NCBI GenBank assembly: GCA_016283355.1
Contig: JAEEMS010000005.1
Coordinates: 1 to 64,000 of the forward strand
Direction of reading: 5' to 3'
Origin: Elusimicrobiaceae bacterium
GTDB taxonomy: Bacteria > Elusimicrobiota > Elusimicrobia > Elusimicrobiales > Elusimicrobiaceae
DNA: 64,000 nucleotides
In this document: positions 14,770 through 62,879 of the stretch, piece by piece
How the letters are laid out: each line of letters opens with the position of its first letter
Position numbering within the stretch: the first letter of the stretch is position 1
The notes under the pieces: model-generated
What the model was told of the DNA's origin: nothing
The model's database searches: none
What the model saw: the letters and a program-made list of their open reading frames with translations, nothing else
Position numbers and translations under genes: made by a program

Positions 14770-16323
14770 TTATTTGGCAGCATCCGAAAGGTAGTGACAA
14801 CCGATACTGCGCTTATTTTGCAGTGCTGCATACGTGATGAGCAAAGCCGTACGCACGCCGTTGCGCAAATCCAACAATTCCTGACAAAGCGTAGTGCCTT
14901 TATAAAAAGCATCAATTTCATTGTGTAAATGACGCAGAATTTTTTCCGCACGGACCAAGTGCTTTTGGCTGCGGATTAACCCCACATAATTCCACATTGT
15001 GCTGCGCAACGTAGCAAGATCTTGCCGAATGAGAGCAATGTCCGGCGTATCCGAAGGAAGCACCCATTCTTTGGGCGTAGGAATATGAAAAGAGGTGTTT
15101 TTAATTTCCCGTGCATCTTCGTGTGCACACAAATAACCCATGGCCACCGCTTCCAATAACGAGGTACTGGCTAAACGGTTGGCTCCGTGGTAACCGGTAC
15201 AAGCCGTTTCCCCTATGGCATTGAGATGCAAAATATTGGTGCGCCCTTGCGGGGTAGCATAGATACCGCCGCAAAAATAGTGCGCGGCCGGCACAACCGG
15301 TACCGGCACACGGGTCATATCAAATCCGCCTTCCAAACATTTTTGATAGATGGCAGGGAAACGTTCTTGTGTTTCCTGTGCGGGATTGGATGTAATATCC
15401 AAATAAACGCAATCATGGGCGGTTTTGAGCCGTTCTTCTTCAATCGCACGGGCCACAATATCCCGTGGGGCTAAATCTTTAAGCGGGTGGTAATGTGCCA
15501 TAAATGCTTCCCCGTGGCAATTGCGCAAAACGGCCCCTTCTCCGCGCAATGCTTCGGACAAGAGAAACGTCTTACCTTTGGCAAATACCGTCGGGTGGAA
15601 TTGGACATATTCCATGTTCATTACCCGCGCCCCCACACGGTACGCCATGGCAATACCGTGGCCGTATGCATGGGCCGAATTGGTAGTATGTAAATAAATT
15701 TGCCCGACACCGCCGGTGGCTAAAATCGTTTTTTTGGCGGTTACCGCCGTTACTTCACCGGTGCGGTTGTCCAATACATACGCACCAAAAACAGTCAGCG
15801 GGTAATACCGGTCCATTAAATCTACGGAGCTGTGAGATAACGTTAACAAATCAATGGCGGAGGCATGTTCCCAAACGGTAATACGCGCATTTTTCTTAAC
15901 CGACTGTTGCAAGGCACTGAGCATGGCATGGCCGGTTGTATCTTTGGAGTAAATGATACGGTTTTTGCGGTGGGCACCTTCCCGCGTGAAACGGAGTTGG
16001 TTTTTTTCATCCCGGTCAAACGTAACAGCTACATCTTTTAGAAAAATTTCTTCAATCGCACGGAATCCTGCCCGGGAGATTTCTTCCACAGCACGTGTAT
16101 TGCACATGTGCGCCGTGGCCAACTTAACATCTTCCAACAAGTCCGCCATATTTACATGCGGCTCATATACGATGCCACCTTGGGCCAAATCGCTATTGGC
16201 TTCCTGCATTTCTCCGCAAGAAAGCAATATCGTATGAAGCCCTTGTTTAGCAGCTTCGTGCGCGTAGACACATCCTGCAATTCCCGCACCGATAACCAAA
16301 CAATCCGTAGTGATAATTTTCAT
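14770..16323 (-). CDS. nadB: L-aspartate oxidase
   Basis: 517 aa. This FAD enzyme oxidises aspartate to iminoaspartate for quinolinate synthesis; in anaerobes fumarate can be the acceptor. The N-terminal FAD fold has VIGAGIAGC, then SDLAQGG; further on are REGAHRKNRI, the ATGGVGQIY loop, QFHPT and a C-terminal helical domain. The ATG at 16323 begins right at the Rossmann strand. The longer frame to 16353 lies partly upstream of the promoter, so it was rejected. The -10 ends 6 nt before this ATG with no ribosome site, so the message is probably leaderless. Its partners nadA and nadC are ~42 kb away at 57.5-59.4 kb. Confidence 0.95.
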   Translation of the reverse strand: MKIITTDCLVIGAGIAGCVYAHEAAKQGLHTILLSCGEMQEANSDLAQGGIVYEPHVNMADLLEDVKLATAHMCNTRAVEEISRAGFRAIEEIFLKDVAVTFDRDEKNQLRFTREGAHRKNRIIYSKDTTGHAMLSALQQSVKKNARITVWEHASAIDLLTLSHSSVDLMDRYYPLTVFGAYVLDNRTGEVTAVTAKKTILATGGVGQIYLHTTNSAHAYGHGIAMAYRVGARVMNMEYVQFHPTVFAKGKTFLLSEALRGEGAVLRNCHGEAFMAHYHPLKDLAPRDIVARAIEEERLKTAHDCVYLDITSNPAQETQERFPAIYQKCLEGGFDMTRVPVPVVPAAHYFCGGIYATPQGRTNILHLNAIGETACTGYHGANRLASTSLLEAVAMGYLCAHEDAREIKNTSFHIPTPKEWVLPSDTPDIALIRQDLATLRSTMWNYVGLIRSQKHLVRAEKILRHLHNEIDAFYKGTTLCQELLDLRNGVRTALLITYAALQNKRSIGCHYLSDAAK

Positions 16324-16329
16324 AGTTAC

Positions 16330-16335
16330 ATTATA
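16330..16335 (-). promoter_or_regulatory. leaderless -10 of nadB
   Basis: TATAAT on the minus strand is followed by 6 nt and then the ATG of nadB. No Shine-Dalgarno fits between. Confidence 0.65.
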
Positions 16336-16371
16336 TAAAAGTAACACAAACAAAACACCGGTGTGAAATAA

Positions 16372-16398
16372 AAATGCCCCTGAAAAACAGGGGCATTT
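16372..16398 (-). terminator. terminator of the minus-strand prepilin gene
   Basis: An 11-bp stem (AAATGCCCCTG and complement) with a 5-nt A loop is followed on the minus strand by T-rich sequence. Confidence 0.8.
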
Positions 16399-16417
16399 AA
16401 GAAAGTATCTCTTTTAT

Positions 16418-17290: not shown

Positions 17291-17321
17291 AGAATCCTCC
17301 CAATAATGGACCTTCTATACT

Positions 17322-17349
17322 ATTATAACGTTTTTACACGTTTTTTCAA
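17322..17349 (-). promoter_or_regulatory. sigma-70 promoter of the minus-strand prepilin
   Basis: TTGAAA (17344-17349) and TATAAT (17322-17327) read on the minus strand with a 16-nt spacer. A GGGAGGA site follows in the leader. Confidence 0.75.
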
Positions 17350-17371
17350 GCCCTTTTTGAGGGTTGAAAAA
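17341..17371. promoter_or_regulatory. dyad between divergent prepilin promoters (putative shared operator)
   Basis: TTTTTTCAAGCCCT is followed by a short spacer and then AGGGTTGAAAAAA, a ~13-bp inverted repeat with one extra G. Each arm contains the -35 hexamer of one of the two divergent prepilin genes, so one protein bound here would reach both promoters. Confidence 0.5.
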
Positions 17372-19438: not shown

Positions 19439-21286
19439 TTATTCTGCCAATGCATTCTCCACTTGTTCGTTCAAGCTCATCCATTGATCTTCCGCTTTGG
19501 AAAGTTCGTCCGCTATCAAAGCCAGTTCAATACTGCTGGCTGAAGAATATTGTACCACTAATTCTTCTTCCAACGCTTTTTTACGTGCGGATAATTTCGT
19601 CATTTTTTCATCCAGGGCACGGATTTCCTTTTTTAAAGGCGCTACCCGCGCGCGCCGCTGGGCGGCTTCCCTGCGTTGGCGTTCTTTAGATGTTTCTTTA
19701 TCGCTGGCAAGATCGTTACGGTCGTTATTTTTTAACAATTGAGCTTTGTAATCTTCCAAGTCCCCGCTAAAGGTTTTACACGTGCCGTGGCGGACCATCC
19801 ACAACGTGTCGCACGTCAATTCAATGACGTGCAAATCGTGCGTAATAAGGACCACTGCGCCTTCGTAATTATTCAATGCTTCAATCAGTGCTTGGCGGGA
19901 TTCCAAATCCAAATGGTTGGTCGGCTCGTCTAAAATAAGTAGGTGCGGGGCATCTTTGGTAATGAGTGCTAACAGCAAGCGTGACTTCTCCCCCCCGGAG
20001 AGATTACCGATTAACGTGTCAGATTTTTCTTTGTTTAATCCAAACGCTCCCAGTTGGGCACGAATTTGCGTTTCGGTGGCTAAAGGCATTTTGGCGCTGA
20101 GCATTTCATAGGGGGTTTGTTCAACGTCTAATTCTTCCGTCTGATGTTGGGAAAAATAAGCCACTTTCATTTTTTTGGCCAAGGTCATTTTGCCGCTTAA
20201 CAAGAGAAGACGGTGGGATAAAATTTTGGCCAATGTGGATTTTCCGTTGCCGTTGGCCCCCAATAGCGCAATACGGTCATCGGGCTCGATGCGAAGGTCT
20301 AAATTTTCCAATACTGGTTTGTCGTCATAGCCGGCCACGCCGTTTTCCAGGGTAAGCAAAGAGTTATGCAACCGCTCCGGCGAAGGAAACACAAAATGCG
20401 CTTGCGGGTCTTTGGGAATTTGCGGTGCATCGCCTAATTTTTCAATCATTTTTAAACGGCTTTGCGCCTGCTTGGCTTTGGTTGCTTTGTAACGAAAACG
20501 ATCCACAAAACTTTGCAAATGCGCCACGGTACGTTCGTGTTTGGCAGCGGCCAATTTGGCTCCTTCAATAGCAAGGGCGCGGGTACGTTCGTACGTGTCA
20601 TAATTGCCGTTGTAAAGTTTTAATTGGCCTTCTTCTACGTGAATAATTTTATCGCAAACACGGTTTAAAATGTGGCGGTCGTGCGAAATGATAAAAATTG
20701 TTTTATCCGTACGGACAAGATAATTTTCCAGCCACATGGCTGTTTCCAAATCTAAATGGTTGGTCGGTTCGTCTAGTAATAAACAGTTAGACGGTGCGTA
20801 CAAGCAAGACGCTACATTGGCCCGCACTTGCCAACCGCCGGAAAATTCTTTGAGCGGACGGTTGAAATCCTCTTGCATGAAACCCAAACCGCTTAAAATG
20901 GCACTGGCCCGGGCCTGGGCACTATGTGCTCCCAATGTTTCCAAACGGTCAAAAATTTCTGCCATACGCTCGCCGGAAATTTGCGGATTTTCCAATTCCT
21001 TTTGTAATGCAGTTAGACGTTTATCGGCCGCCAATACATAATTTAGAAGTGTTTGCGACGGATCATCTATTTCCTGTGCTACGGAAGCAATTTGCGTGCC
21101 GCGGGATATCTCTATTTTCCCGCCGTCCGGTGAGAATTTACCTTCGATGAGTTTAAAAAGCGTACTTTTCCCGCACCCGTTGGGGCCTACCAGGCCCACT
21201 TTTTGCCCGTCTTGAATCATGACGGAAGTTTCTTCGAACAGGGTGCGCAATCCAAAATGAAAAGAAAGACGCTCAATATCTATCAT
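19439..21286 (-). CDS. ABC-F family ribosome-associated ATPase
   Basis: 615 aa with two ABC ATPase domains and no membrane domain. Walker A motifs are GPNGCGKST (~residue 35) and GANGNGKST (~residue 345). Signatures are LKEFSGGW and NLSGGEKSR, each followed by LLDEPTNHLDLE or LILDEPTNHLDLE. The linker between them is the basic P-site tRNA-interaction motif region, and a C-terminal coiled coil of about 70 residues is visible. The layout resembles the YheS/Uup branch. These proteins bind the ribosomal E site and ease translation problems. A TAAAAT hexamer ends 7 nt before the ATG and there is no Shine-Dalgarno, so a leaderless start is likely. Confidence 0.93.
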   Translation of the reverse strand: MIDIERLSFHFGLRTLFEETSVMIQDGQKVGLVGPNGCGKSTLFKLIEGKFSPDGGKIEISRGTQIASVAQEIDDPSQTLLNYVLAADKRLTALQKELENPQISGERMAEIFDRLETLGAHSAQARASAILSGLGFMQEDFNRPLKEFSGGWQVRANVASCLYAPSNCLLLDEPTNHLDLETAMWLENYLVRTDKTIFIISHDRHILNRVCDKIIHVEEGQLKLYNGNYDTYERTRALAIEGAKLAAAKHERTVAHLQSFVDRFRYKATKAKQAQSRLKMIEKLGDAPQIPKDPQAHFVFPSPERLHNSLLTLENGVAGYDDKPVLENLDLRIEPDDRIALLGANGNGKSTLAKILSHRLLLLSGKMTLAKKMKVAYFSQHQTEELDVEQTPYEMLSAKMPLATETQIRAQLGAFGLNKEKSDTLIGNLSGGEKSRLLLALITKDAPHLLILDEPTNHLDLESRQALIEALNNYEGAVVLITHDLHVIELTCDTLWMVRHGTCKTFSGDLEDYKAQLLKNNDRNDLASDKETSKERQRREAAQRRARVAPLKKEIRALDEKMTKLSARKKALEEELVVQYSSASSIELALIADELSKAEDQWMSLNEQVENALAE

Positions 21287-21293: not shown

Positions 21294-21299
21294 ATTTTA
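21294..21299 (-). promoter_or_regulatory. leaderless-type -10 of the ABC-F gene
   Basis: TAAAAT on the minus strand, 7 nt before the ATG at 21286. Confidence 0.5.
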
Positions 21300-21394: not shown

Positions 21395-21403
21395 TGATAA
21401 AAT
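21395..21403 (+). promoter_or_regulatory. extended -10 of the FtsA-like gene
   Basis: TGA-TAAAAT (hexamer 21398-21403). The ATG follows after 9 nt without a ribosome site, so the leader would be at most ~3 nt. Confidence 0.5.
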
Positions 21404-25914: not shown

Positions 25915-26478
25915 TTATTTTGCCAATGGTTTGCCGCTCTTCCAAGCTTGACCGACTTTATCTCCTATTTTATAGTAGCCACCTTGGAATTGGTCAAACA
26001 CTAATGCTTGCAATAATGTGACTTCTACCATCCCTTTGGCGTTTAAAACAGAGGTATCGGCCTGCACATTAACAATTCTGCCTACGACACGAAAACCATC
26101 CGGTTGGATTTCGTTCACTTCGCATTCCAGCGTAAGTGGAAATTCTTCAATAATCGGTGCATCTACCCGCTTGCTTTTTACCGCGTGCAAACCGGAACGT
26201 TCAAATTTATCTTTTACATTGTTGCCCGATACTAAACCGAAATAATCAGCTTGCTCTACATGCGCAACATCGGCCACACTTAACGTAAAAGCACGGCGCG
26301 CTTTTAAATTGGCTACCGTTTTGTGGGATTCTTCCAAATTCAAGGCCACTTTATCGTGATCGCAAATGCCACCCCAGGCCATATTCATTACATCTACCGT
26401 GCCGTCTTCGTTATATGTAGCAATCATCAATACCGGCATGGGAAACAAAAACGGTTTTACACCTAGATCTTTCTTCAT
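25915..26478 (-). CDS. flavin reductase-like (FMN-binding split-barrel) protein
   Basis: 187 aa. It matches the flavin reductase-like/flavoredoxin family: PFLFPMPVLMIATYNEDGTVDVMNMAW at the N-terminus is the FMN-phosphate strand pair, followed by LNLEESHKTVANL and FTLSVADVAHVEQADYFGL. These proteins bind FMN and reduce flavins or act as small electron carriers in anaerobes. The partner is unknown. The gene is a single transcript with an extended -10 and a very strong GGGAGGGG ribosome site. It is bounded by terminators. Confidence 0.85.
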   Translation of the reverse strand: MKKDLGVKPFLFPMPVLMIATYNEDGTVDVMNMAWGGICDHDKVALNLEESHKTVANLKARRAFTLSVADVAHVEQADYFGLVSGNNVKDKFERSGLHAVKSKRVDAPIIEEFPLTLECEVNEIQPDGFRVVGRIVNVQADTSVLNAKGMVEVTLLQALVFDQFQGGYYKIGDKVGQAWKSGKPLAK

Positions 26479-26500: not shown

Positions 26501-26509
26501 ATTGTAGCA
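26501..26509 (-). promoter_or_regulatory. extended -10 promoter of the flavin reductase gene
   Basis: Minus strand TTGC-TACAAT (hexamer 26501-26506). The leader of ~16 nt carries GGGAGGGG. Confidence 0.6.
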
Positions 26510-28414: not shown

Positions 28415-28423
28415 TGCTACAAT
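28415..28423 (+). promoter_or_regulatory. leaderless extended -10 of serC
   Basis: TTTTGC-TACAAT (hexamer 28418-28423) ends 6 nt before the ATG at 28430. Confidence 0.7.
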
Positions 28424-28429: not shown

Positions 28430-29575
28430 ATGATTAAATTAGATTCCCATTATTTACCGTCTGTTACGTTTGCCTGCGGCCCCGCCCAGGGATTACCCTC
28501 CGTAAGAGAGAGGGCCCTTTATCAAACTCTTTTTGAACGCAGCCACCGAGCGCCCGATATGTCTTTTAACGGCTTATATAAAGAAGCCGAAAATAATTTG
28601 CGGACCCTGTTGAACGTGCCTTCGGATTATACGCTCTTATTCTTCCCGGGCGGAGCAACCGCCGCCATGGATGCGGTACTGTGGAGTTTGACAAAGTCAC
28701 ACGTGAGCGGGCTTAATATGGGCGCATTTAGCCGCCTGTGGTGCAGCCGCTTGGCTCCGCGCGTGCCGGGTATTCATACTGATTTTTTAGAGGTGGATTT
28801 AATCCCGCAAGCGTTGCCCAACACAGCGGCTGACCTGGTGATTTTGACCCCGAACGAAACCTCTACCGGAGTACAACTGCCGGATGATTATTTGCAAGAC
28901 GTATGGAACCGCCGGAGCAAAGATACGTTGGTAGCGTGGGATACAACTTCCTGTGCCGGAGGGCGCGCACTGCCGGCCGGGATATACGATATACAACTCT
29001 TTGGATTGCAAAAATGTTTTGCGGCCGGTGGCGGAACATGTGCGTTGATTTTAAGCCCCAAAGCGATTGCGCGGGCAAAGGAAATGGCCACCCGACGCAA
29101 TATTCCCTTTTTACTCGATCTGACAAACGCCGTTCCGTTTGCACAACAAAAACATCAAACGCTCAATACCCCCTCCACCATTAATATTTGGATGGCCAAC
29201 GAAGGGGCTAAATTTATGCTTTCGCACGGCGGAATGAAAGAAATGGAAAAATTGTGCCGTTTGCACACGGATCACTTGGTCACGTGGGCCCAACAGACCG
29301 ATTGGATTCGCCCGCTTATACAAAATGCGAAATACCGCTCTTTCACAACCCTTACGATGGAAATTATCCACCCGAAAATTCAAGATACACGCCTCAACGA
29401 AGCGTTGGCTGCCACGGGACTTAAAAATTTACAAGACGGATTAAAAAAATACCATACGGTAGAGAAAAATTCGTTGCGCATCGCGTGTTTCCCGTTTGCT
29501 GACACAAACGGCGTGGAAGAGTATAAAAAACTAACTGCCACGCTCGATGAAATAGCGCGGCAGTTAAAAGCATAA
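28430..29575 (+). CDS. serC: phosphoserine aminotransferase (class V PLP enzyme)
   Basis: 381 aa. It converts phosphohydroxypyruvate to phosphoserine using PLP. The N-terminal FACGPAQGLPSVRERA corresponds to the SerC F-x-x-GPA-x-LP signature. LFFPGGATAAMDAVLWSL is the cofactor-phosphate loop, and the Schiff-base lysine is in FGLQKCFAAGG. An R-I-x-CFPF pattern ends the C-terminal domain. Other class V enzymes are possible, but the N-terminal signature favours SerC. The upstream frame extends past the promoter, so the ATG at 28430 is the start; it lies 6 nt after the -10 and has no ribosome site. serA and serB are not nearby. Confidence 0.82.
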   Translation: MIKLDSHYLPSVTFACGPAQGLPSVRERALYQTLFERSHRAPDMSFNGLYKEAENNLRTLLNVPSDYTLLFFPGGATAAMDAVLWSLTKSHVSGLNMGAFSRLWCSRLAPRVPGIHTDFLEVDLIPQALPNTAADLVILTPNETSTGVQLPDDYLQDVWNRRSKDTLVAWDTTSCAGGRALPAGIYDIQLFGLQKCFAAGGGTCALILSPKAIARAKEMATRRNIPFLLDLTNAVPFAQQKHQTLNTPSTINIWMANEGAKFMLSHGGMKEMEKLCRLHTDHLVTWAQQTDWIRPLIQNAKYRSFTTLTMEIIHPKIQDTRLNEALAATGLKNLQDGLKKYHTVEKNSLRIACFPFADTNGVEEYKKLTATLDEIARQLKA

Positions 29576-29583: not shown

Positions 29584-30495
29584 TCACTGTTCGTCTTTTT
29601 GAATGTAGCCGAATTGCTCTAATTTGGACGTGTCGTTGCGCCAATTGGGCGACACCACGACATTGAGTTCCACACGGTATTTTTTACCCAAAAATTCTTC
29701 AATGCGCTTTTGGCTTTTTTCGCGCAATTTGGCAATCATACTGCCACCCTTACCGATGATAATGGGTTTTTGGCTATCGCGCTCCACATGGATGTTGGCA
29801 CGGATGAAATTTTTAGCCCCCAAATCTTCCGTAAATTTTTCAATTTCCACATATGTACTGTAGGGAATTTCTTTTTGATAGAGTTGAAAAAGTTGCTCAC
29901 GGATAAATTCGGCCGCGTAAAAACGTTCAAAACGGTCCGTCCATTGACCTTTTGGAAAGTAAGCCGGAGAAACAGGCAACGCTTGTGCTACCGTCTCTAA
30001 CAACATTGTCGTACCTTGTTTTTTAGCGGCAGAAATACGAAATGTTTTAGTGATTTTGAGCTCCGCTTCCACACGTGTTTGTAACGTATCCAACACCGCA
30101 TTATCCTTGACCAAATCAATTTTATTAAGGACGAGAAAAATAGGGCAAAATACATGCTTTAATTTTTCAATGAGTTGCGAATTCAAGGCGTTCTCCGCCG
30201 AGGCGTCCACCAAAAAAAGTACCACATCGGCTTCTTCGTTTACGGCCCGATTGACGCAATCTGCCATGGTTTGCTGCAGTTTGTATTGGGGTTTTAAAAA
30301 GCCGGGCGTATCTACAAAAACAATTTGGTAATTATTCCCTTCGCTGATGGCCAAGATATTTTGGCGCGTGGTTTGGGGCTTGTTTGTAACGGCCGATAAA
30401 AGCCCGCCGGCTAACGCATTTAGCAACGTTGATTTCCCTGCGTTAGGTAATCCTGCAAGTACCGCAAAACCGCTTTTAAATTTTTGTTCGTCCAT
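29584..30495 (-). CDS. era: GTPase Era
   Basis: 303 aa, typical length. The GTPase domain has GLPNAGKST (G1), TTRQN switch I, DTPGFLKP (G3) and LNKIDL (G4). The C-terminal KH domain has the GKGGSMIAKLR loop, which binds the 3' end of 16S rRNA during 30S assembly. The ATG lies 6 nt after a TACAAT hexamer with no Shine-Dalgarno, so translation is probably leaderless. It is divergent from the VanX-like gene, and their promoter elements are only ~23 nt apart. Confidence 0.96.
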   Translation of the reverse strand: MDEQKFKSGFAVLAGLPNAGKSTLLNALAGGLLSAVTNKPQTTRQNILAISEGNNYQIVFVDTPGFLKPQYKLQQTMADCVNRAVNEEADVVLFLVDASAENALNSQLIEKLKHVFCPIFLVLNKIDLVKDNAVLDTLQTRVEAELKITKTFRISAAKKQGTTMLLETVAQALPVSPAYFPKGQWTDRFERFYAAEFIREQLFQLYQKEIPYSTYVEIEKFTEDLGAKNFIRANIHVERDSQKPIIIGKGGSMIAKLREKSQKRIEEFLGKKYRVELNVVVSPNWRNDTSKLEQFGYIQKDEQ

Positions 30496-30501
30496 ATAGC
30501 T

Positions 30502-30507
30502 ATTGTA
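30502..30507 (-). promoter_or_regulatory. leaderless -10 of era
   Basis: TACAAT on the minus strand, 6 nt before the ATG at 30495. Confidence 0.65.
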
Positions 30508-30526
30508 CTTATTTTTGCTTGTAAAG

Positions 30527-30535
30527 TGTTATACT
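30527..30535 (+). promoter_or_regulatory. leaderless extended -10 of the VanX-like gene
   Basis: TGT-TATACT (hexamer 30530-30535), 6 nt before the ATG at 30542. Confidence 0.65.
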
Positions 30536-30541
30536 AAGAGT

Positions 30542-31159
30542 ATGAGAAAATGGCTACCCATCCTCCCGCTTTTGCTGGTGCTGTGTGCTACGGTTTACGC
30601 CCAAAGCGATTTAATAGACGTAGAAACGGTAGAAGATTTGCCAGTTTTTGTCCGGCTGCGTTATGCCACGGAAAATAATTTTACGGGGAAGAAAATCTAC
30701 AACGCCAATAAATGTTACCTGCGTAAAGAAGCCGTAGAAGGGCTCAAAAAAGCTGTAAAACTCGCAGCGCAGGAAGAAAAACCGTTTACGTTTTGCCTGT
30801 GGGATTGCTACCGGCCTCAAGATGCACAGAAAATATTGTGGAACGCTTTTCCCAATGCCAGCTATGTAGCTTCTCCCAGAAGAGGTTCGCGCCACAGCCG
30901 CGCGATGGCCGTTGATTTAACCCCGTGCGATTTTAACGGCACTCCTTTGGAAATGCCAACCGACTTTGACGATTTCACGCCACGCGCCCACATGGATTAT
31001 TATGAGTTGGATTTGCCGGATGCGATTTTACTGCGGCGTGAAAAACTAAAAGAAATTATGAAAGCTGCCGGATTTACTTACACACGCACCGAGTGGTGGC
31101 ATTTTGATAAGAAAGGATGGAAAAACAAACCGCTACTCAACATCCCGTTAGAAAAATGA
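30542..31159 (+). CDS. secreted D-Ala-D-Ala dipeptidase, VanX/DdpX family (M15D)
   Basis: 205 aa with a signal peptide (LPLLLVLCATVYA/Q), so it acts in the periplasm. The zinc site is complete: His118 and Asp125 in SRHSRAMAVD, and Glu184 with His187 in EWWHFD. The glycine usual after SRHxR is alanine here. The family cleaves D-Ala-D-Ala. With a signal peptide and no vanA/vanH neighbours, a wall-recycling or nutritional role (like DdpX) is more likely than glycopeptide resistance. The first possible start (30503) lies upstream of the promoter, so the ATG at 30542 is used. A terminator overlaps the stop codon. Confidence 0.85.
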   Translation: MRKWLPILPLLLVLCATVYAQSDLIDVETVEDLPVFVRLRYATENNFTGKKIYNANKCYLRKEAVEGLKKAVKLAAQEEKPFTFCLWDCYRPQDAQKILWNAFPNASYVASPRRGSRHSRAMAVDLTPCDFNGTPLEMPTDFDDFTPRAHMDYYELDLPDAILLRREKLKEIMKAAGFTYTRTEWWHFDKKGWKNKPLLNIPLEK

Positions 31160-34224: not shown

Positions 34225-35472
34225 CTAATTTAATGTTATTGTATCTTTTTTGATAGGAACCGGCACGTTTTGTTTGCCGTCTTCCGCGTCTGTCAGACGG
34301 TAGCGCATCCGCCAAAAACCATACCCCGCCAGTAACGCTATTGTCCCTACAATGATCCACGGGCCGGGCAAATAATGTGGGGCAATCGCATCACTGAGAA
34401 CGCCGGCCATAAAAAACCCGGCCGCGGAGCCAAAGTTGTAAAACACCATTAACATCCCCAAGTACCGCCCGCGTGTTTCCCGCGAGGCAATGTTGGAAAC
34501 GAGCGTTTGTTCTCCGGGCGAAACAATCAGTTCCCCCACCCCTGCCAAAAAGACGCCTAACGCAATGGGGCCGAAAGAGCCAAAAAAGCCGACTGACCCA
34601 AATCCTACCGCATAAAGTATACATCCCAAAAGCATGGCGGTAGAAAGACGAATTTTTTTCATCCACCGGGTAGCCCAGTATTGCAAAAACACAACCACCA
34701 GGCCGTTAATCGTGAAGAACCAACCGATAAAATACTCCGGCATATTCAAGTATTGCTTACAATGGACCGATAGCCCTACCACCAACTGGGAATTGACAGC
34801 CGTAATCATCACTACGTAAAGACAAATTTTAGCCAAACGCGTATCTTTTAATGATAAAAGCGTAGAAACAAAACTCGGTTTGCGTTTGCGACCGGGTTGC
34901 ACTTTACGGTCCCGTACCAACCGGGAAACATACAATATAGTAACAGCGTACAAAATGGCGGTAAAATAAAATGCTGTACTGTACGAATAACGCACTAAAA
35001 ATCCGCCCACCGCCGGCCCCAGTGCCCAACCGATATTCAACCCAATGCGGATGATGCCAAATGCTTCTACCCGGGTACGAGCCGTAGTATTATCCGTAAC
35101 CCATGCATTGGCCGCCGGACGGAAAAATGCGCCCAAAAAAGTGGTCAGAAAGTAACAGGTGAGCATCCAAGGCACATCCACTTGGAACGAAATACACAAC
35201 CCTAACGCAAACATGGCCACAATTTGGGAAAGAAGCCCCCACATCATCACATTCTTGCGGCCGAAAGTATCCGCTAACTCGCCGGAAATGGCACTGGAAA
35301 CACAGCGCGACAACCCCGCCAGAGCAATCATCAAACCGGCCAACGCCGACGACAAACTCCGCTGGGAAATTAAATAAATCGTAAAAAACGGCAAAGAAAG
35401 CCCATACCCAAACAGGAGCAATCCGTTGGCAACGGACACGACAATCATGCTGGCACGGGTATATTTATGCAT
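34225..35472 (-). CDS. MFS transporter
   Basis: 415 aa with about 12 transmembrane segments. The MFS loop 2-3 motif is visible as GELADTFGRKNVMMWG, and motif C-like AFGIIRIGLNIGWALGPAVGG lies in helix 5. It resembles the drug/sugar-exporter DHA1 group, but the substrate cannot be told. The ATG at 35472 is chosen because it lies 6 nt after a TACAAT hexamer; the longer frame (to 35628) covers the divergent promoter. The message is probably leaderless. It is first in the operon with the small membrane protein, maf and trxB. Confidence 0.85.
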   Translation of the reverse strand: MHKYTRASMIVVSVANGLLLFGYGLSLPFFTIYLISQRSLSSALAGLMIALAGLSRCVSSAISGELADTFGRKNVMMWGLLSQIVAMFALGLCISFQVDVPWMLTCYFLTTFLGAFFRPAANAWVTDNTTARTRVEAFGIIRIGLNIGWALGPAVGGFLVRYSYSTAFYFTAILYAVTILYVSRLVRDRKVQPGRKRKPSFVSTLLSLKDTRLAKICLYVVMITAVNSQLVVGLSVHCKQYLNMPEYFIGWFFTINGLVVVFLQYWATRWMKKIRLSTAMLLGCILYAVGFGSVGFFGSFGPIALGVFLAGVGELIVSPGEQTLVSNIASRETRGRYLGMLMVFYNFGSAAGFFMAGVLSDAIAPHYLPGPWIIVGTIALLAGYGFWRMRYRLTDAEDGKQNVPVPIKKDTITLN

Positions 35473-35478: not shown

Positions 35479-35484
35479 ATTGTA
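35479..35484 (-). promoter_or_regulatory. leaderless -10 of the MFS operon
   Basis: Minus strand TACAAT, 6 nt before the ATG at 35472. Confidence 0.65.
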
Positions 35485-37061: not shown

Positions 37062-38801
37062 TTATAAAATAGTAGCGCGCTTTATCTTTTCAAAAGGCAA
37101 AAAGGTGTTTTCGGGCAATGTAATGGGCAAAACACCTTGGGCCGCACGCGACCCTAATAAAATTTCCGCCGCCACAGTTGTTGTATCCGATGTAGGGCCG
37201 TAAAGGGCTACTACGGTTTTTGCTTGCGGATAGGAAGGAATTTCATAAGGATTTAATAAGGATACCAATGCAGCCGGTATCCGGCGCGATTGGGCTTGTT
37301 GAAGCAAAGCCACGGTTTTTTCAAATTGTTCCGGTTGTAAGGAAGACGTTGCCGAGGTTCCCACAATCACGGCCTCTGCCTTGTGCATACAGGAAGATAT
37401 GTTCTTATCCGCATCTGCCGAAGGCGTGCGCGGAGTTTGTACATATTTCACCTTTTTCCCCTGCTGTTTGAGTACATCGACAAAAGCATATACTTGATTT
37501 GAAAAAATACCGTCCGCAAACATGACCACGCATACATTGGAAGCGCTTTTCAAAGAGAGCGGAAAACTTTGCGTATCCCGCACAAGGGTTACCCCTTTTT
37601 CCGCTACCCGGCGGGAAGTGCGGGCAAATTCCGCTTCATCGGAGGTCGCATCGGATGGGTGGGCCAAAAGTTGCTTTAAATCCAACACACGTTGCACACT
37701 TTTGACCAGGGCATCCTTATCCACACGAGGGTGAGTTTGATACAAATCTTCTTCCACCCATGTAGCCGCTTGACCGGGGTATTGCGCAGATGCTTCAAAT
37801 TCGGTCGTTCCCCCCGTAAGGAGCAACACATCGTTCCCCGCGGCAAAGCCATCCAAAACGATATCTCTGATCGGTTTCCCGTTGGTACCGCCCATATCTA
37901 AACCGTCCGTCATCACCAATCCGTTGAAACCGATTTTATCACGCAAAATATTCTGAATAATTTTACGGGAAAAAATAGCGGAATTTTCTGCATCCACCTG
38001 CGGATAAACTACGTGATTGGTCATTACCCCCCATACCCCTTTTTCAATGGCAGGGATAAAGGAGGAAATATGGGTATCCCATAGTTCTTTTTCCGACAGA
38101 TTAGTTATCGGCTGGGAATAGTGGGAATCGGTCGCCGTATCGCCGTGACCGGGATAGTGTTTCACGCAGCCCGGAACTCCGTACGTTTGTAATCCCTCTA
38201 CCGCTGCCGCCGCATACCGACCCACTTGGGAAGCGTTATCGCCAAATGAACGCGTTTGGATAATGGGGTTAGCGGGATTGGAATTCACGTCCGCATCCGG
38301 CCCTAAGGCCATATTTCCCCCCACACGTTTAATTTCGGCGGCCTGTTGGGCATACATTTGGCTGATAAGCAACGGATCCTGCGTAGCGGCCAACAACATA
38401 TTTGACGGCATCTGTTTAAGCCCCATGAACATGGGAGAAGTGACCGTTCCCCCTTCGTAATCAAATCCAAGCAAAAGCGGAATTTGGCGGGGATTTTTGG
38501 AAGCCCACGTATTTAAATCACGAATAGTTTGTATCAGTTTTTTACGCTGTTTGGCCAAAAATTTGTCTTGGTTTTTACGCGTAATGACCGGATGCACCGT
38601 TAGTCCTTCGCTCGCTTTAACAAAAAAACCTGTAATTTCTCCTTTTTCAAGCGGTTCTTTAAAAACATGATGATGACCAATTACTACACGCGGCATAATC
38701 GTCTGGCCAACAAGCTCCCGGGTGGAAAGTTCGTTGGCGGCAGGTAACGCAAACGCGTAAACGCTTGCCAGCAACACAGTCAAAATAAGATATTTTTTCA
38801 T
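37062..38801 (-). CDS. secreted glycoside hydrolase family 3, beta-N-acetylhexosaminidase-like (NagZ type)
   Basis: 579 aa with a signal peptide (YLILTVLLASVYA). The GH3 TIM barrel has LLGFDYEGG near residue 115, the NagZ-specific acid/base loop KHYPGHGDTATDSH (~residues 207-220) and the nucleophile in VMTDGLDMGG. A GH3 C-terminal alpha/beta domain follows, unlike single-domain E. coli NagZ. It should remove beta-GlcNAc from muropeptides or other glycans in the periplasm. A TATAAT hexamer ends 6 nt before the ATG, so the start is probably leaderless. Confidence 0.87.
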   Translation of the reverse strand: MKKYLILTVLLASVYAFALPAANELSTRELVGQTIMPRVVIGHHHVFKEPLEKGEITGFFVKASEGLTVHPVITRKNQDKFLAKQRKKLIQTIRDLNTWASKNPRQIPLLLGFDYEGGTVTSPMFMGLKQMPSNMLLAATQDPLLISQMYAQQAAEIKRVGGNMALGPDADVNSNPANPIIQTRSFGDNASQVGRYAAAAVEGLQTYGVPGCVKHYPGHGDTATDSHYSQPITNLSEKELWDTHISSFIPAIEKGVWGVMTNHVVYPQVDAENSAIFSRKIIQNILRDKIGFNGLVMTDGLDMGGTNGKPIRDIVLDGFAAGNDVLLLTGGTTEFEASAQYPGQAATWVEEDLYQTHPRVDKDALVKSVQRVLDLKQLLAHPSDATSDEAEFARTSRRVAEKGVTLVRDTQSFPLSLKSASNVCVVMFADGIFSNQVYAFVDVLKQQGKKVKYVQTPRTPSADADKNISSCMHKAEAVIVGTSATSSLQPEQFEKTVALLQQAQSRRIPAALVSLLNPYEIPSYPQAKTVVALYGPTSDTTTVAAEILLGSRAAQGVLPITLPENTFLPFEKIKRATIL

Positions 38802-38807: not shown

Positions 38808-38816
38808 ATTATATCA
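38808..38816 (-). promoter_or_regulatory. leaderless extended -10 of the GH3 gene
   Basis: Minus strand TGA-TATAAT (hexamer 38808-38813), 6 nt before the ATG at 38801. Confidence 0.7.
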
Positions 38817-43191: not shown

Positions 43192-44904
43192 TTATTTCGG
43201 TTGGTAGAAGGTACGGATGAGTTCCAAAACGGGTTTGTCTTGTACGCGGCGGGAGCGCAACGGAATAATCGCATTTCCTTCTTCGGTAGTAACAACTACA
43301 TAATCTTCTTTCACGTCAAATATACTGCGCCGGGCTTGCAAATCAAACAAGCTGTGCCCGAACATCCCGCGCGGAATTTCTAAATTTAGCAAATCCAATA
43401 GGGTGGGAGCAATGTCCAATTGGCTGGCCAACGCATTATCCGTTAACGGGGATGTTATTTTACTTTTCGTTACGATGATAAAAGGCAAATTATCAAATTC
43501 CGCGCGGAAAGGTTTAAACAGCGCATTGGTCGGCGTGTTAGAATAAGATGGATGATCGGGCATCACAAGCACCAATGTTTGTTCATCCCATAATCCCTTT
43601 TCTGCCAACATGTCCAAAAATCGTTGCACATCTTGCCCGAAGCGACCGAATGCACGCGGCAAGGTTGGTGTTTTATAAAATTTATGGTCCGTTTCCCGAT
43701 ATGTTTCACCCAAATAATCCAAACGCCCCAACGGCACGTGTGTATCTACGGTAAGCAGTGTAAGAAAAACGGGGGTATCTTTCTTTTCCGCCAAAAACTC
43801 TACGGCATAATCAAAAAGTTTGCGGTCCATAAGCCCCCACCAATTCAGGTATTTTTTATAATCATCCCGTTTTTGAAAATAGGTAGCTCCGATTACATCT
43901 TTGAACCCGGCCTGATGAAACAAAATATGTTCATCCATATAGGTTTCATTCGCGCCGCGCAAAAAAGCCGTGTGGTATCCGTGCTTATTTAATTCTTTTA
44001 CCAACGAAATAGGATACTGATTTTCAAACGACAACTGCGCGTACGGATGAGAAGTAAAAATAACGGTTAAACCGTAAAGGGTGGAAAGTGTAACGTGACG
44101 CAAAGAGGCGGAAGGGTTGTTTTCATACAAGCGGTCCAATTCCCGGGAAGCATCTGCCGGGATTTGCGAATTAAAGTGGTGTAGGTATTTATTGGATAAA
44201 GATTCGGATGCAATTAAAATAACACGTTTGTAATTTTTACCGACCGGAGTGGGTTGTGCGGAAAATACATTATAGTGCGGGGCAAGTGCGGGCAATTCTT
44301 GCGTGAAAACAGGCGTCGGTTTTTGGGCGAGCATGGCACGCCCGGTATATATAATGGAAGGAGGGAGCAAATACGCGTGATAAAAAGGTAATAAATAAGA
44401 AATTCCCCAAAGCAAGAATAATCCGCTTGCGCACCACGCAATCCGTTTGAGTGCCGTTTTGCGCGAAGCGGGTACAAAAAATTTCCATAGGACTGTTCCG
44501 CAAAAAAGAAGAAGCAAAGCAAAACATAACAGCACGCGCGGATCGGTTAAAAAGCCGTAATCCCCCCCCTGCAACGTGTCTACATATTTCGCCCCGAAAC
44601 GTTCCTTAAAATACCATAACAAAACGACGTCTGCAATCACGGTCCAATAATAGAAAAAAGCAACGACCGTCAAAACAGGTTTATTTTTAAGTCCGCACAG
44701 TTGCACAAGGGATAAACAAATCCCTAAAAATAAAAATTCGCACGTCCATTTTAGAACGGATAGCCATACGCAGTTACTAACGGTAAAAATGTTTAGTTGG
44801 GAAAGCCCGAACCATCCGAGCAATACGGCCGGGAAGGAAAAAATCAGCAAAAGTTTCCAATCGTTCCGGAAAGACGTTATTAAACTATCGCGCAATTTCT
44901 GCAT
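43192..44904 (-). CDS. membrane sulfatase-fold transferase, LtaS/phosphoethanolamine-transferase type
   Basis: 570 aa. About five N-terminal transmembrane segments fill ~200 residues, followed by an extracytoplasmic sulfatase domain. Its alkaline-phosphatase-fold marks are LIASESLSNKYL (metal/nucleophile block), TVDTHVPLG and VMPDHPSYSN. The family moves phosphoglycerol or phosphoethanolamine onto envelope glycolipids, glycans or lipid A. In a diderm with LPS genes, lipid A or oligosaccharide decoration is the likely use. The donor is unknown. A TATAAT hexamer ends 6 nt before the ATG, so the start is probably leaderless. Confidence 0.8.
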   Translation of the reverse strand: MQKLRDSLITSFRNDWKLLLIFSFPAVLLGWFGLSQLNIFTVSNCVWLSVLKWTCEFLFLGICLSLVQLCGLKNKPVLTVVAFFYYWTVIADVVLLWYFKERFGAKYVDTLQGGDYGFLTDPRVLLCFALLLLFCGTVLWKFFVPASRKTALKRIAWCASGLFLLWGISYLLPFYHAYLLPPSIIYTGRAMLAQKPTPVFTQELPALAPHYNVFSAQPTPVGKNYKRVILIASESLSNKYLHHFNSQIPADASRELDRLYENNPSASLRHVTLSTLYGLTVIFTSHPYAQLSFENQYPISLVKELNKHGYHTAFLRGANETYMDEHILFHQAGFKDVIGATYFQKRDDYKKYLNWWGLMDRKLFDYAVEFLAEKKDTPVFLTLLTVDTHVPLGRLDYLGETYRETDHKFYKTPTLPRAFGRFGQDVQRFLDMLAEKGLWDEQTLVLVMPDHPSYSNTPTNALFKPFRAEFDNLPFIIVTKSKITSPLTDNALASQLDIAPTLLDLLNLEIPRGMFGHSLFDLQARRSIFDVKEDYVVVTTEEGNAIIPLRSRRVQDKPVLELIRTFYQPK

Positions 44905-44910: not shown

Positions 44911-44916
44911 ATTATA
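44911..44916 (-). promoter_or_regulatory. leaderless -10 of the sulfatase-type transferase gene
   Basis: Minus strand TATAAT, 6 nt before the ATG at 44904. Confidence 0.65.
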
Positions 44917-54128: not shown

Positions 54129-54716
54129 TTATTTTTTTAGTTCCAATACTTCATCAATTAATCCGTAATCTTTAGCTTCTTGCGCAGACATATAATAGTT
54201 GCGTTCGCTGTCGTGGCGGATTTTTTCTTTGTCCTGCCCCGTGTGGTGAGCTAAAATATCCAAGAGGTGTTCTTTGTTTTTATGCAATTCTTGCGCTTCA
54301 ATTTCAATGTCCGTCACTTGGCCGGAAATCCCCCCGCCCCAAATCAGCGGTTGGTGAATCATGATGCGTGCATGCGGCAAGGCATAGCGTTTGCCTTTGG
54401 AACCGGCAGCCAACAAAACGGCCCCAAAACTCATGGCCTGGCCCATACATATAGTAGTAATAGGCGCTTTGATAAATTGCATGGTGTCGTAAATGGCCAA
54501 TCCCGCTGTTACCATACCGCCGGGAGAGTTAATATAAAGGTTGATTTCCCGGGTGGGGTCATCCGCATCCAAATACAAAAGTTGCGCGATAATCATATTG
54601 GCGCTGGCGGTATCTACTTCGCCTTCGCGGCCGCCCACAAAGATAATGCGGTCTTTGAGCAGGCGGGAAAAAATATCGTAACCAACATTTTTTTCAATAA
54701 TAGTAGGTATAATCAT
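54129..54716 (-). CDS. clpP: ATP-dependent Clp protease proteolytic subunit
   Basis: 195 aa from the ATG at 54716, which gives the familiar MIIPTIIEK start. The catalytic triad is Ser96 ([14 protein letters not shown]), His121 (MIHQP) and Asp169 (HDSERN). The frame upstream to 54731 runs into the promoter, so it was rejected. TACAAT ends 6 nt before the ATG with no ribosome site, so the start is probably leaderless. Neither clpX nor tig is next to it. Confidence 0.96.
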
Positions 54717-54722: not shown

Positions 54723-54728
54723 ATTGTA
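54723..54728 (-). promoter_or_regulatory. leaderless -10 of clpP
   Basis: Minus strand TACAAT, 6 nt before the ATG at 54716. Confidence 0.65.
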
Positions 54729-59372: not shown

Positions 59373-59374
59373 AA

Positions 59375-60043: not shown

Positions 60044-61558
60044 ATGCAACTGATTAGTAGTTTATGGATTCACGTACAAGCGTTTTTTACACACCCCTCT
60101 TTACAAGGTTTATACGACGTTGTAAACGCGTTTAACAATTTAGTTTGGGGCCCACCGATGATTATTTTGTTGTTTACGTTGGGGCTCTATTTTACCTGCA
60201 AACTTAATTTCATTCAAAAATATATCTGGCCGTCCATCAAACTCTCCGTCCATAAAACAGAAGCCGAAGGGATGGTAAGCAGTTTTGGTTCGTTGGCGGT
60301 AATGATTGGGGCTACCGTAGGCACCGGTTGTATCATCGGGGTAACTACCGCTATCGCCGAAGGCGGACCCGGGGCGCTGTTTTGGATGGCCATGGCCGGA
60401 ATTGTCAATTTTGCAATCAAATACGCGGAATGTATGGCGGCTTTTAAATACCGCGTTCAATTGCCCGACGGCGAATACGTAGGCGGACCGATGTACTTTT
60501 TGTCTAACATCTTAAAGATGAAAAGAATGGGCCTTATTTTTGCTATCGGCACTTTGCTGACCGGATTAACCGCCGGCAGTGCTTTGCAATCTAACTCTAT
60601 TGCGGACGCGCTGCGGGAAGGGTACAATCTCAATCCGTGGTACGCCGGATTTTTTATTGCGTGTGCCACGGCCGCTGTCATTATGGGTGGCGTAAAACGT
60701 ATTGCGAATTACTCGCAATGGTTGGTGCCGATTATGGGCGGGTTATATCTTCTGGTAACTTTCGCCGTAATAGGAATGAATTTTTCTAAAATTCCAAGCG
60801 CCGTGTGGATTATTTTTCGCTCGGCGTTTACCGGCAAGGCCGCGATAGGCGGGGCTATCGGTGTGGGATGTGTGGGAATCATTCAAGCCATGTTGCCGGG
60901 ACTCACAGCCGGTATCACACGGGCCGTTTTGACAACGGAAGCCGGTTTGGGCAGTGCCTCCATAGCAGCGGCGGCCGCCCGTACACGCAGTGCCACGCAA
61001 ATGGCGTTGGTATCGGCCTCCTCGGTTTTTTGGACCATTTTTATTTGTTGTCTTACCGGGATTGTTATTGTACTGGCCGGGGATTACACCAATCCCAACG
61101 TCTATGCGGCCAATTTGTGCAACAGCGCATTTAAAACCGTCCCGTATATCGGAACGCCTATTTTGGCGTTTTCCCTTGTCATTTTTTCCTTTACCACTAT
61201 TATCGGCTGGGGATATTATACGGAAAAATCACTCCAATTTTTGTGTAAGGGGTCAAATGTGTTGGTACGACCGATACGCGTATTATTTGTTCTTCTTACG
61301 TTTGTCGGCGCGTGGATTGGCACCAGTTTTTCCTGGCACCCTTTTATTGCAGATTCTTTACTGCGTACGGCACAAGCCAACCTTTCCACCCGGTTCATGT
61401 GGGCATTAGCGATTATGACCATGACCATGATGACCTTGCCCAATATTTGGGCGTTGTGGTGTTTGCGTAAAGTAATTTGGAAAACGACACGCCGCTATTT
61501 GCCGGGCGTTGTGGAAAGAGCCGTTGCCAAATTAAATAAATCTTCCGCCGAACGCTAG
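60044..61558 (+). CDS. sodium:alanine (AGCS family) symporter
   Basis: 504 aa with about 11 transmembrane segments. AGCS marks are GATVGTGCIIGVTTAIAEGGPGA in part, the FAIKYAECMAAFKYR block, GGVKRIANYSQWLVP and the LTTEAGLGSASIAAAAAR segment. The family imports alanine or glycine with Na+. The start follows GGGAGGA. It is a single-gene unit ended by a perfect terminator. Confidence 0.93.
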   Translation: MQLISSLWIHVQAFFTHPSLQGLYDVVNAFNNLVWGPPMIILLFTLGLYFTCKLNFIQKYIWPSIKLSVHKTEAEGMVSSFGSLAVMIGATVGTGCIIGVTTAIAEGGPGALFWMAMAGIVNFAIKYAECMAAFKYRVQLPDGEYVGGPMYFLSNILKMKRMGLIFAIGTLLTGLTAGSALQSNSIADALREGYNLNPWYAGFFIACATAAVIMGGVKRIANYSQWLVPIMGGLYLLVTFAVIGMNFSKIPSAVWIIFRSAFTGKAAIGGAIGVGCVGIIQAMLPGLTAGITRAVLTTEAGLGSASIAAAAARTRSATQMALVSASSVFWTIFICCLTGIVIVLAGDYTNPNVYAANLCNSAFKTVPYIGTPILAFSLVIFSFTTIIGWGYYTEKSLQFLCKGSNVLVRPIRVLFVLLTFVGAWIGTSFSWHPFIADSLLRTAQANLSTRFMWALAIMTMTMMTLPNIWALWCLRKVIWKTTRRYLPGVVERAVAKLNKSSAER

Positions 61559-61584
61559 GGAATAGGTGTTTTCTCTTGAAATGC

Positions 61585-61610
61585 AAAAGACCTACAGATG
61601 TAGGTCTTTT
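61585..61610. terminator. bidirectional terminator between the AGCS gene and cinA
   Basis: AAAAGACCTACA / TGTAGGTCTTTT, a perfect 12-bp stem with a 2-nt loop. Confidence 0.9.
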
Positions 61611-61634
61611 GTTATGTTGATAGGTGTACGGAAT

Positions 61635-62864
61635 TTATTTTTCTATCAAGGCGATTAAATCTACCAACGCTTGCACACTGGCACGGCCGATGTTGCGCTC
61701 ACGCGTGTGGGCAAACCAATATTTTTTGGCGTGTACACCGTCCGGCCCGGCCACACCAATCCACACCGTACCGACCGGTTTTTCGGAACTGCCACCGTCC
61801 GGTCCGGCAATGCCGGTGGTGGAAACCGCATACTCGGCCCCCGTCAACTTACGTACTCCTTGCGCCATCTGGCAAGCGACTACTTCACTTACCGCGCCGT
61901 ATTTTTCCAAATCTTCTTTTTGCACACCCAATGCAGTTATTTTTACTTCGTTGGCGTAGGCCACCACCCCGCCTAAAAAATAGGCAGAAGAACCGGCTAC
62001 CGACGTAATCAAATGTGCAATATTCCCCCCGCTGCAACTTTCTGCACACGCAATAGTACGCCCAGCGCGGCGCAAACGAAGGGCAATGTTTTCTTCGTTT
62101 TGTTCCGATTCATTTTCCAAAAAAGAAAATTCGTGCAATTCTTTTTTTAATTTTTCAAAATATTCTCTCAACGGAGCCGTTGCACTTGTACACGTCAACC
62201 GCAAGCGCACAAACCCCGGCGAAGGCAAATACGCCAGCGCCAATCCTTCGGGCAAAGTATCCTCAAATTTTTCCAACCGTTGGGCAATATCGGATTCAGG
62301 CACTTGGTAAACGGTCAACATTTTATAACGTACGTTTAACTGCGTAAATTTTTGTTTGATACGCGGTAAAACTTCTTGTGCAAAAATTGTTTCCATCTCA
62401 AAGGGCACACCCGGTAAAGAGACGAGGACTTTCCCGTCTTTTTCGAACCACATGCCGCACGCCGTTCCTTTGGCATTGTGTAGCGGCGTACAAGCGGCCG
62501 GCAATAAAACTTGAGAAGCATTATACGGGTTGTTCAACCGCTCGGGTTGCGCAGCCAACAATTTCCGCAACCAAACGGCAGCTTGTTCGTTTTTGACTAA
62601 TGTTGTGTGAAAATAATCGGCCAATGCTTGCTTTGTAATATCGTCTTTTGTTGGGCCTAATCCGCCGGTTACAAGCACCAAATCCGACGTGACCCACAAC
62701 TCCTCAATGGCTTGCACAATCGCGCTGTGCGCATCCGATACCGAGCGCATTTCAATAGTTTGTGCGCCCAAACGGGCCAATTCCCGCGCCAAATAACGGG
62801 AGTTTGTATCTAAAATTTGCCCAAGTAAAATTTCATCGCCGATTGTTAAAATACTTGTTTTCAT
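61635..62864 (-). CDS. cinA: CinA: competence/damage-inducible protein, NMN amidohydrolase
   Basis: 409 aa. The N-terminal MoaB-like COG1058 domain begins ILTIGDEILLGQILDTNS and has VTGGLGPTKDD. The C-terminal PncC domain has CAESCSGGNIAHLIT and GIAGPDGGSSEKPVGTVWIG. The combined protein deamidates NMN in pyridine nucleotide recycling. TGC-TACAAT ends 6 nt before the ATG and there is no ribosome site, so the start is probably leaderless. Confidence 0.95.
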   Translation of the reverse strand: MKTSILTIGDEILLGQILDTNSRYLARELARLGAQTIEMRSVSDAHSAIVQAIEELWVTSDLVLVTGGLGPTKDDITKQALADYFHTTLVKNEQAAVWLRKLLAAQPERLNNPYNASQVLLPAACTPLHNAKGTACGMWFEKDGKVLVSLPGVPFEMETIFAQEVLPRIKQKFTQLNVRYKMLTVYQVPESDIAQRLEKFEDTLPEGLALAYLPSPGFVRLRLTCTSATAPLREYFEKLKKELHEFSFLENESEQNEENIALRLRRAGRTIACAESCSGGNIAHLITSVAGSSAYFLGGVVAYANEVKITALGVQKEDLEKYGAVSEVVACQMAQGVRKLTGAEYAVSTTGIAGPDGGSSEKPVGTVWIGVAGPDGVHAKKYWFAHTRERNIGRASVQALVDLIALIEK

Positions 62865-62870
62865 AAAATT

Positions 62871-62879
62871 ATTGTAGCA
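62871..62879 (-). promoter_or_regulatory. leaderless extended -10 of cinA
   Basis: Minus strand TGC-TACAAT (hexamer 62871-62876), 6 nt before the ATG at 62864. Confidence 0.7.

What the first reader, a model, noticed from the sequence alone, without database searches (positions are those of the whole stretch)
16323..62876. A set of genes with -10 hexamer exactly 6 nt before ATG: widespread leaderless transcripts
Nine genes have a TAnAAT/TATACT-type hexamer, exactly 6 nt, then ATG, with no Shine-Dalgarno: nadB (16330), serC (28418), era (30502), the VanX-like gene (30530), MFS (35479), GH3 (38808), sulfatase-type transferase (44911), clpP (54723), cinA (62871). The ABC-F gene (7 nt), the small ORF at 63325 (7 nt) and the FtsA-like gene (9 nt) are close. 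Since transcription normally begins ~6-7 nt after the -10, these mRNAs would start at or next to the AUG. Other genes in the window (lon, yajC, flavin reductase, yggS, NifU-like) have the same kind of -10 but a leader with GGAGG-type sites, so two start modes coexist. The constant spacing is not expected by chance. Leaderless genes of this TANNNT-N6-ATG type are known from Deinococcus and Actinobacteria.
Basis: partly seen in the sequence, partly recalled or inferred. Interest (0 to 1): 0.8.

Follow-up and report, generated by a model that had tools for sequence, protein, structure and literature searches.

The report
Leaderless genes in a gut Elusimicrobium relative
About one gene in ten of this uncultured gut bacterium has its promoter set so that the messenger RNA should begin right at the start codon with no ribosome-binding leader, a known way of making proteins, found here in a lineage for which my paper searches turned up no report of it.

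Summary
All nine genes have a TANAAT/TATACT box, exactly 6 nt, then ATG, and no Shine-Dalgarno (SD) site. The window belongs to a 1.40-Mb Elusimicrobiaceae MAG. In 357 kb sampled outside the window, TANAAT lies 6 nt before ATG 20 times; 1000 dinucleotide shuffles give mean 1.8, maximum 7. GTG and TTG show no such peak. Of 370 ORFs with a usable ATG, 50 have the box at 6-8 nt; an SD precedes that ATG in 1 of 50, whereas 193 of the other 320 have an SD at one of their first three ATGs.

era keeps the arrangement in 35 of 35 same-genus genomes read; cinA is leaderless in 16 and SD-led in 15 of 33, seven of the latter keeping the box with an SD leader between it and the ATG. Excess over 14-nt spacing (p<0.001) occurs in 28 of 30 own-genus genomes and 0 of 78 of other classes; the own genome just misses (p=0.00102). 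I read this as leaderless transcription beside ordinary SD initiation: a known kind, without a report for Elusimicrobiota in my searches. No transcript data were available.

The parts
16330..16335 (-). -10 box TATAAT, 6 nt before the ATG at 16323 of a nadB-like gene (14770-16323)
   Evidence: L-aspartate oxidase models best, below cut-off; Pfam
28418..28423 (+). -10 box TACAAT, 6 nt before the ATG at 28430 of a serC-like gene (28430-29575)
   Evidence: phosphoserine transaminase models best but below cut-off
30502..30507 (-). -10 box TACAAT, 6 nt before the ATG at 30495 of era (29584-30495); box at 6-7 nt in 35 of 35 same-genus genomes read
30530..30535 (+). -10 box TATACT, 6 nt before the ATG at 30542 of a D-Ala-D-Ala dipeptidase gene (30542-31159), divergent from era with 46 bp between the two ATGs
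35479..35484 (-). -10 box TACAAT, 6 nt before the ATG at 35472 of an MFS transporter gene (34225-35472)
38808..38813 (-). -10 box TATAAT, 6 nt before the ATG at 38801 of a glycoside hydrolase 3 gene (37062-38801)
44911..44916 (-). -10 box TATAAT, 6 nt before the ATG at 44904 of a sulfatase-family gene (43192-44904)
54723..54728 (-). -10 box TACAAT, 6 nt before the ATG at 54716 of clpP (54129-54716); the three nearest named relatives have an SD leader instead
62871..62876 (-). -10 box TACAAT (TGC before it), 6 nt before the ATG at 62864 of cinA (61635-62864)
21294..21299 (-). -10 box TAAAAT, 7 nt before the ATG at 21286 of an ABC-F gene (19439-21286)
63312..63317 (+). TAGAAT, 7 nt before the ATG at 63325 of a short ORF (79 aa)
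   Evidence: too short for the ORF sets used in the counts
21398..21403 (+).
26501..26506 (-). Contrast: TACAAT of a leadered gene (ATG 26478), 22 nt upstream, with GGGAGG between box and ATG

Best explanation
These are sigma-70-type promoters, some of the extended TGn-TANAAT kind, with a weak -35, whose transcription start coincides with the A of the ATG (or lies 1-2 nt before it), so the mRNA has no leader. The ribosome then recognises the 5'-terminal AUG itself, as known for leaderless mRNAs, while most other genes of the same cell use leaders with an SD site read by an intact anti-SD. About a tenth of the genes, more often than not with a divergent upstream neighbour, work this way. Shown: box, spacing, statistics, SD absence, ATG restriction, conservation, taxonomic spread. 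Inferred: the actual 5' end and ribosome recruitment.
For: Spacing peak at 6-8 nt in the sample outside the window, 38 against shuffle mean 5.2 and maximum 13 of 1000; before ATG only. In sigma-70 promoters the base 7 nt after the box is commonly +1 (recalled; PMC3160421, passages, uses the same logic). SD at the ATG in 1 of 50 candidates; SD at any of the first three ATGs in 6 of 50 against 193 of 320 others, Fisher p=9e-11; divergent upstream neighbour in 28 of 50 against 73 of 320, co-directional neighbour within 30 nt in 5 of 50 against 147 of 320. era box at 6-7 nt in 35 of 35 same-genus genomes read (31 at 6, 4 at 7), although sequence beyond about -25 differs. cinA: same protein start, TGCTA(C/G)AAT kept, and an SD present where a leader lies between them (7 genomes, d=17-31). 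Own genus 28 of 30 genomes enriched at d=6 over d=14, p<0.001; own genome 125 against 80, p=0.00102. 16S 3' ends keep CCTCCTTT in 6 of 6 found (15 genomes searched). In none of the nine genes has either of the next two downstream in-frame starts an SD 4-mer, and four (era, GH3, sulfatase, cinA) have no upstream in-frame ATG/GTG/TTG/CTG before a stop.
Against: No transcript data. The T before ATG (26 of 30 at d=6) is only modestly commoner than in SD-led genes (41 of 50 against 117 of 193, p=0.005), so it is weak support for a start at A. TANNNT as such is not enriched genome-wide. TGn precedes the box in 19 of 50. About 8 of the 50 are expected by chance (background about 2.7 per position). 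MFS has one upstream CTG with an SD 4-mer. The own genome misses the p<0.001 line in the d=6 against d=14 count. Several genomes of the same family and order show no significant excess.
Confidence: 0.9

Rival explanations
1. The hexamers are a by-product of AT-rich sequence before genes; there is no functional spacing.
For: TANAAT is common in AT-rich DNA; loose TANNNT shows no genome-wide excess.
Against: Dinucleotide shuffles of the same upstream regions never reach the observed count in 1000 trials; no peak at 0-5 nt, none before GTG/TTG; era box kept in 35 of 35 genomes read.
Confidence: 0.02
2. The boxes are real promoters, but translation starts elsewhere (a downstream in-frame start with a leader, or an upstream start from another promoter).
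For: Five of the nine have upstream in-frame start-like codons, and MFS an SD-like 4-mer before a CTG. Start misassignment is reported in leaderless genomes (PMC12340547, passages).
Against: NadB, Era, ClpP and CinA match family models from residues 1-7 on; N-termini of Era and CinA orthologs begin at this ATG; no SD before the next two downstream starts in any of the nine.
Confidence: 0.04
3. The transcripts have a leader in part of the molecules: a second, upstream promoter or read-through gives a non-SD leader, and the leaderless form is one of two.
For: 5 of 50 lie within 30 nt of a co-directional gene and 16 more behind a co-directional gene further off, so read-through is possible for some.
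Against: 28 of 50 have a divergent neighbour; era and the dipeptidase gene have 46 bp between their ATGs, leaving little room for a second promoter.
Confidence: 0.15

Closest known systems
TA-led / leaderless genes of bacteria (Zheng et al. 2011, PMC3160421; abstract, section 7 and passages seen)
   Same: -10-like box about 12 bp before the start codon, no SD, coexistence with SD-led genes, change of mode between orthologs of related genomes (there measured in bulk), TG before the box in some low-GC genomes.
   Different: The word Elusimicrob- does not occur there; the 207 positive of 953 genomes include 'one unclassified'. Here the box is TANAAT with a sharp mode at 6 nt, and the change is seen gene by gene as a leader between a kept box and a kept ATG.
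-10-motif adjacent to ORFs in Deinococcus-Thermus (PMC12340547, passages seen)
   Same: -10 region placed so that leaderless mRNA results, active without a -35 and enhanced by one, spacing requirement; shown there by experiment.
   Different: About 30% of ORFs there on average; about 10% here. Motif TANNNT there, TANAAT here.
Leaderless transcriptome of Mycobacterium tuberculosis (PMC3898074, search listing only)
   Same: Leaderless transcripts as a large class in a bacterium.
   Different: Mapped experimentally there; unrelated phylum.
GeneMarkS-2 survey of representative genomes (as cited in the StartLink paper PMC9581028, passages seen; the original is not held)
   Different: The word Elusimicrob- does not occur in the StartLink paper.

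Membership tests
Bacterial leaderless (TA-led) genes | -10-type box at a fixed short distance before the start codon, beyond chance | tested here: met
Bacterial leaderless (TA-led) genes | no SD site at that start codon | tested here: met
   1 of 50 with an SD 4-mer; internal in-frame ATGs 77 of 1425
Bacterial leaderless (TA-led) genes | start codon AUG | tested here: met
   peak before ATG only
Bacterial leaderless (TA-led) genes | position at the head of a transcription unit | tested here: met
   as a tendency: divergent neighbour 28 of 50 against 73 of 320; 5 of 50 within 30 nt of a co-directional gene
Bacterial leaderless (TA-led) genes | arrangement conserved in orthologs | tested here: met
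   within the genus for era (35 of 35) and in part for cinA (16 of 33); not for clpP in its three nearest named relatives; not for era in the sister family f2 (0 of 24)
Bacterial leaderless (TA-led) genes | primary transcript 5' end at the start codon | not testable with these tools
   no RNA data at hand
Canonical SD-led initiation (for the other genes) | intact anti-SD in 16S rRNA and SD upstream of genes | tested here: met
   CCTCCTTT in 6 of 6 16S genes found in 15 other genomes; the window's own MAG lacks 16S; SD in 193 of 320

The most novel reading that the evidence does not exclude
Within one genus of uncultured gut Elusimicrobiaceae, individual genes flip between leaderless and SD-led translation by gain or loss of an 11-25-nt leader between a kept promoter box and a kept start codon, while other genes (era) are held leaderless throughout; and the whole mode is confined to some families of one class of the phylum. 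That would make the lineage a natural experiment on what selects for leaderless translation.
Probability: 0.55. Interest if true: 0.55.

Novelty: new member of a known kind. Interest (0 to 1): 0.45.

Why it matters
Leaderless expression in bacteria is mostly discussed for Actinobacteria and Deinococcus-Thermus. Its presence in about a tenth of the genes of a small-genome gut lineage affects gene-start annotation in these MAGs, and the gene-by-gene switching with promoter box and protein start held fixed gives matched pairs on which the cause and effect of losing a leader can be tested.

Tried and rejected
The loose TANNNT pattern was tried first and gave no genome-wide excess; the signal is in TANAAT. 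The 'pattern read backwards' control was set aside as too lenient: it is exceeded also in other classes (12334 against 7800, summed by me over the 78 genomes from the table), so I used the same pattern at 14-nt spacing; only this one other spacing was counted genome-wide. Named genomes reached through ClpP loci (36 searched, 1 not held) were counted only against the backward control and are not used for conclusions. ORF-based profiles in relatives were informative for two comparators of other classes (d=6: G115 1, G107 0) but thin in two high-GC genomes with genome-wide excess (G166 d=6: 1, d=7: 3; G043: 0 in 67 kb), where the simple ORF caller is also poor; G141 (same class, no excess over d=14) had 10 at d=6-8 against about 3 expected, p=0.001. 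A first guess that the genome was a Patescibacterium led to two paper searches and was dropped. An S1-protein peculiarity was looked for: 31 of 31 genomes have a match to rpsA, none over the equivalog cut-off, but the same search passed it in only 2 of 14 control genomes; not pursued. The own 16S is missing from the MAG. Dropped rows: 36 of 406 ORFs without a qualifying ATG (50 + 320 kept); era in 2 of 37 same-genus genomes (G013, G026) with no ortholog-grade match; cinA absent in 4 of 37; cinA of G019 left out of the tree count and G005, G023, G032 not in the tree.

Full report
Where it is. The window is contig 11, bases 1-64000, of a 1,400,007-base, 29-contig genome, 96% complete. Its ClpP is 91-94% identical to those of three MAGs labelled Elusimicrobiaceae or Elusimicrobiales, two of them from ruminant colon, so the organism is taken to be an Elusimicrobiaceae gut bacterium (Elusimicrobiota).

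The observation. Each of the nine named genes has TANAAT or TATACT, then exactly 6 nt, then ATG, without an SD 4-mer. Gene names are mostly borne out: Era and a ClpP subfamily model pass NCBIfam cut-offs, CinA passes the cinA subfamily model, the VanX-like gene just meets the D-Ala-D-Ala dipeptidase model (176 bits, cut-off 176), the ABC-F gene passes an ABC-F model; NadB, SerC, MFS, GH3 and sulfatase genes have sub-threshold NCBIfam matches of those kinds and Pfam domains over the gathering score. Nearby leadered genes look as described: the gene with ATG at 26478 has TGCTACAAT 22 nt upstream and GGGAGG between. For lon the nearest such box within 80 nt is 56 nt upstream.

More than chance. 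I sampled 20 further stretches (357 kb, 350 ORFs). TANAAT before the first two in-frame ATGs of each ORF is found 20, 8 and 10 times at distances 6, 7 and 8, against a mean of 2.06 at background distances. Over 1000 dinucleotide-preserving shuffles the count at 6 nt averages 1.78 and never exceeds 7; the window alone gives 8 against mean 0.32, maximum 3. No peak appears before GTG (575 sites) or TTG (696 sites). The wider pattern TANNNT-N6-ATG is not enriched over its backward reading (656 against 733), so the box is a proper TANAAT.

What distinguishes these genes. Of 406 ORFs in sample plus window, 370 have a qualifying ATG; 50 have the box at 6-8 nt (30, 9 and 11). About 8 of the 50 are expected by chance, leaving about a tenth of the genes. 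An SD 4-mer stands before that ATG in 1 of 50; among the other 320, 193 have one before one of their first three ATGs (6 of 50 by that same measure; Fisher p=9e-11); internal ATGs give 77 of 1425. A divergent upstream neighbour is found in 28 of 50 against 73 of 320, and a co-directional one within 30 nt in 5 of 50 against 147 of 320. The d=6 promoters show T-rich -16/-15, G at -14 in half, C at -13 in 57%, TA(T/C)AAT, A at -6 and T at -1 (26 of 30), with only a faint -35; but T at -1 is also common in SD-led genes (117 of 193), so that point is weak. In SD-led genes -10-like boxes are commonest 15-45 nt upstream (56 in those six 5-nt bins) and rare at 10-14 nt (2); the emptiness at 6-8 nt is by construction, as genes with a box there were put in the other class.

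Orthologs. For era, starts were read in 35 of 37 same-genus genomes (own included; the other two, G013 and G026, have no ortholog-grade match): 35 of 35 have the box at 6 or 7 nt (31 and 4; one is TACAGT), with Era identity to the window's down to 62% and sequence beyond about -25 not conserved. For cinA, 33 of 37 have a match; 16 are leaderless, 15 SD-led and 2 unclear. Eight of the SD-led form one clade without a box nearer than 35 nt; the other seven keep a TGCTA(C/G)AAT box, now 17-31 nt from the ATG, with the SD in the added stretch. On a tree of Era plus CinA for 30 of these genomes (29 with a mode) the mode needs at least 3 changes (at least 2 forced by well-supported branches; shuffled mean 10.3); the direction of change is not known. 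clpP is leaderless in the window, but the three nearest named relatives have SD leaders, two with a TATAAT further up; three more distant ones (L032, L033, L035) have SD leaders too, and L034 again has TACAAT, 6 nt, ATG. In the sister family f2 none of 24 era starts shows the arrangement, and in 15 of the 20 read first the conserved end of another reading frame (LWxNP...stop) runs up to or near the start, so era sits in an operon there.

Spread. TANAAT-N6-ATG was compared with TANAAT-N14-ATG in 149 genomes drawn evenly from the phylum. Excess at p<0.001: own genus 28 of 30 (the two that miss are the own genome, 125 against 80, p=0.00102, and G149, p=0.007); other genera of the family 5 of 13; sister family f2 8 of 14; families f7 6 of 7 and f8 1 of 1 of the same class; families f3, f4, f5, f6, f9 of the class 0 of 6; other classes 0 of 78 (summed ratio 0.87). 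Groups are anonymous codes; only one alternative spacing was used; the two other-class genomes sampled are AT-rich (GC 0.30 and 0.34), which raises background, but no ratio there exceeds 1.32. ORF profiles agree for these two (G115 1, G107 0 at d=6).

Mechanism. The best reading is ordinary sigma-70 transcription starting at the A of the ATG, and translation by recognition of the 5'-terminal AUG, next to SD initiation with an intact anti-SD (CCTCCTTT in 6 of 6 16S 3' ends found among 15 other genomes of the phylum). Steps shown are the sequence ones; the RNA end and ribosome binding are inferred.

Known or new. Leaderless genes of this design are known from many bacteria (PMC3160421; PMC12340547; 21.6% of bacterial species in the survey cited by PMC9581028; passages seen). 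Searches for leaderless with Elusimicrobi, leaderless with Elusimicrobiota and Elusimicrobium with transcription start site listed three papers in all; in the passages of PMC10783764 the two classes appear only in a table of anti-SD types, and the other two concern a mycobacterial chaperone and sigma-54 by title (not read). The library misses most subscription papers, and the supplement of PMC12340547 with its domain-wide survey was not open to me, so an earlier listing cannot be excluded. I therefore call it a new member of a known kind, with the gene-by-gene switching as its most useful feature.

Noticed in passing
window 30495-30542: era and the D-Ala-D-Ala dipeptidase gene are divergent with only 46 bp between their ATGs, both with a box at 6 nt: two back-to-back promoters of this kind in a minimal space.
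   Followed up: partly
window 7737-13298 (-): A 1853-aa ORF with -10-like boxes at 11, 20 and 28 nt and an SD (TTGGAGGG) before its ATG; not identified.
   Followed up: no
G000:C11:124134-125120 and relatives: The best S1-protein match covers only about the first 350 of 516 positions of the rpsA model (open frames about 400 aa), below the equivalog cut-off in 31 of 31 genomes.
   Followed up: no
window 62977-63048 (+): tRNA-Arg (CCG) lies just upstream of the leaderless cinA, on the opposite strand.
   Followed up: no
L034 upstream of position 3001: clpP of a more distant genome has TACAAT, 6 nt, ATG, while the window's nearer relatives have SD leaders.
   Followed up: partly
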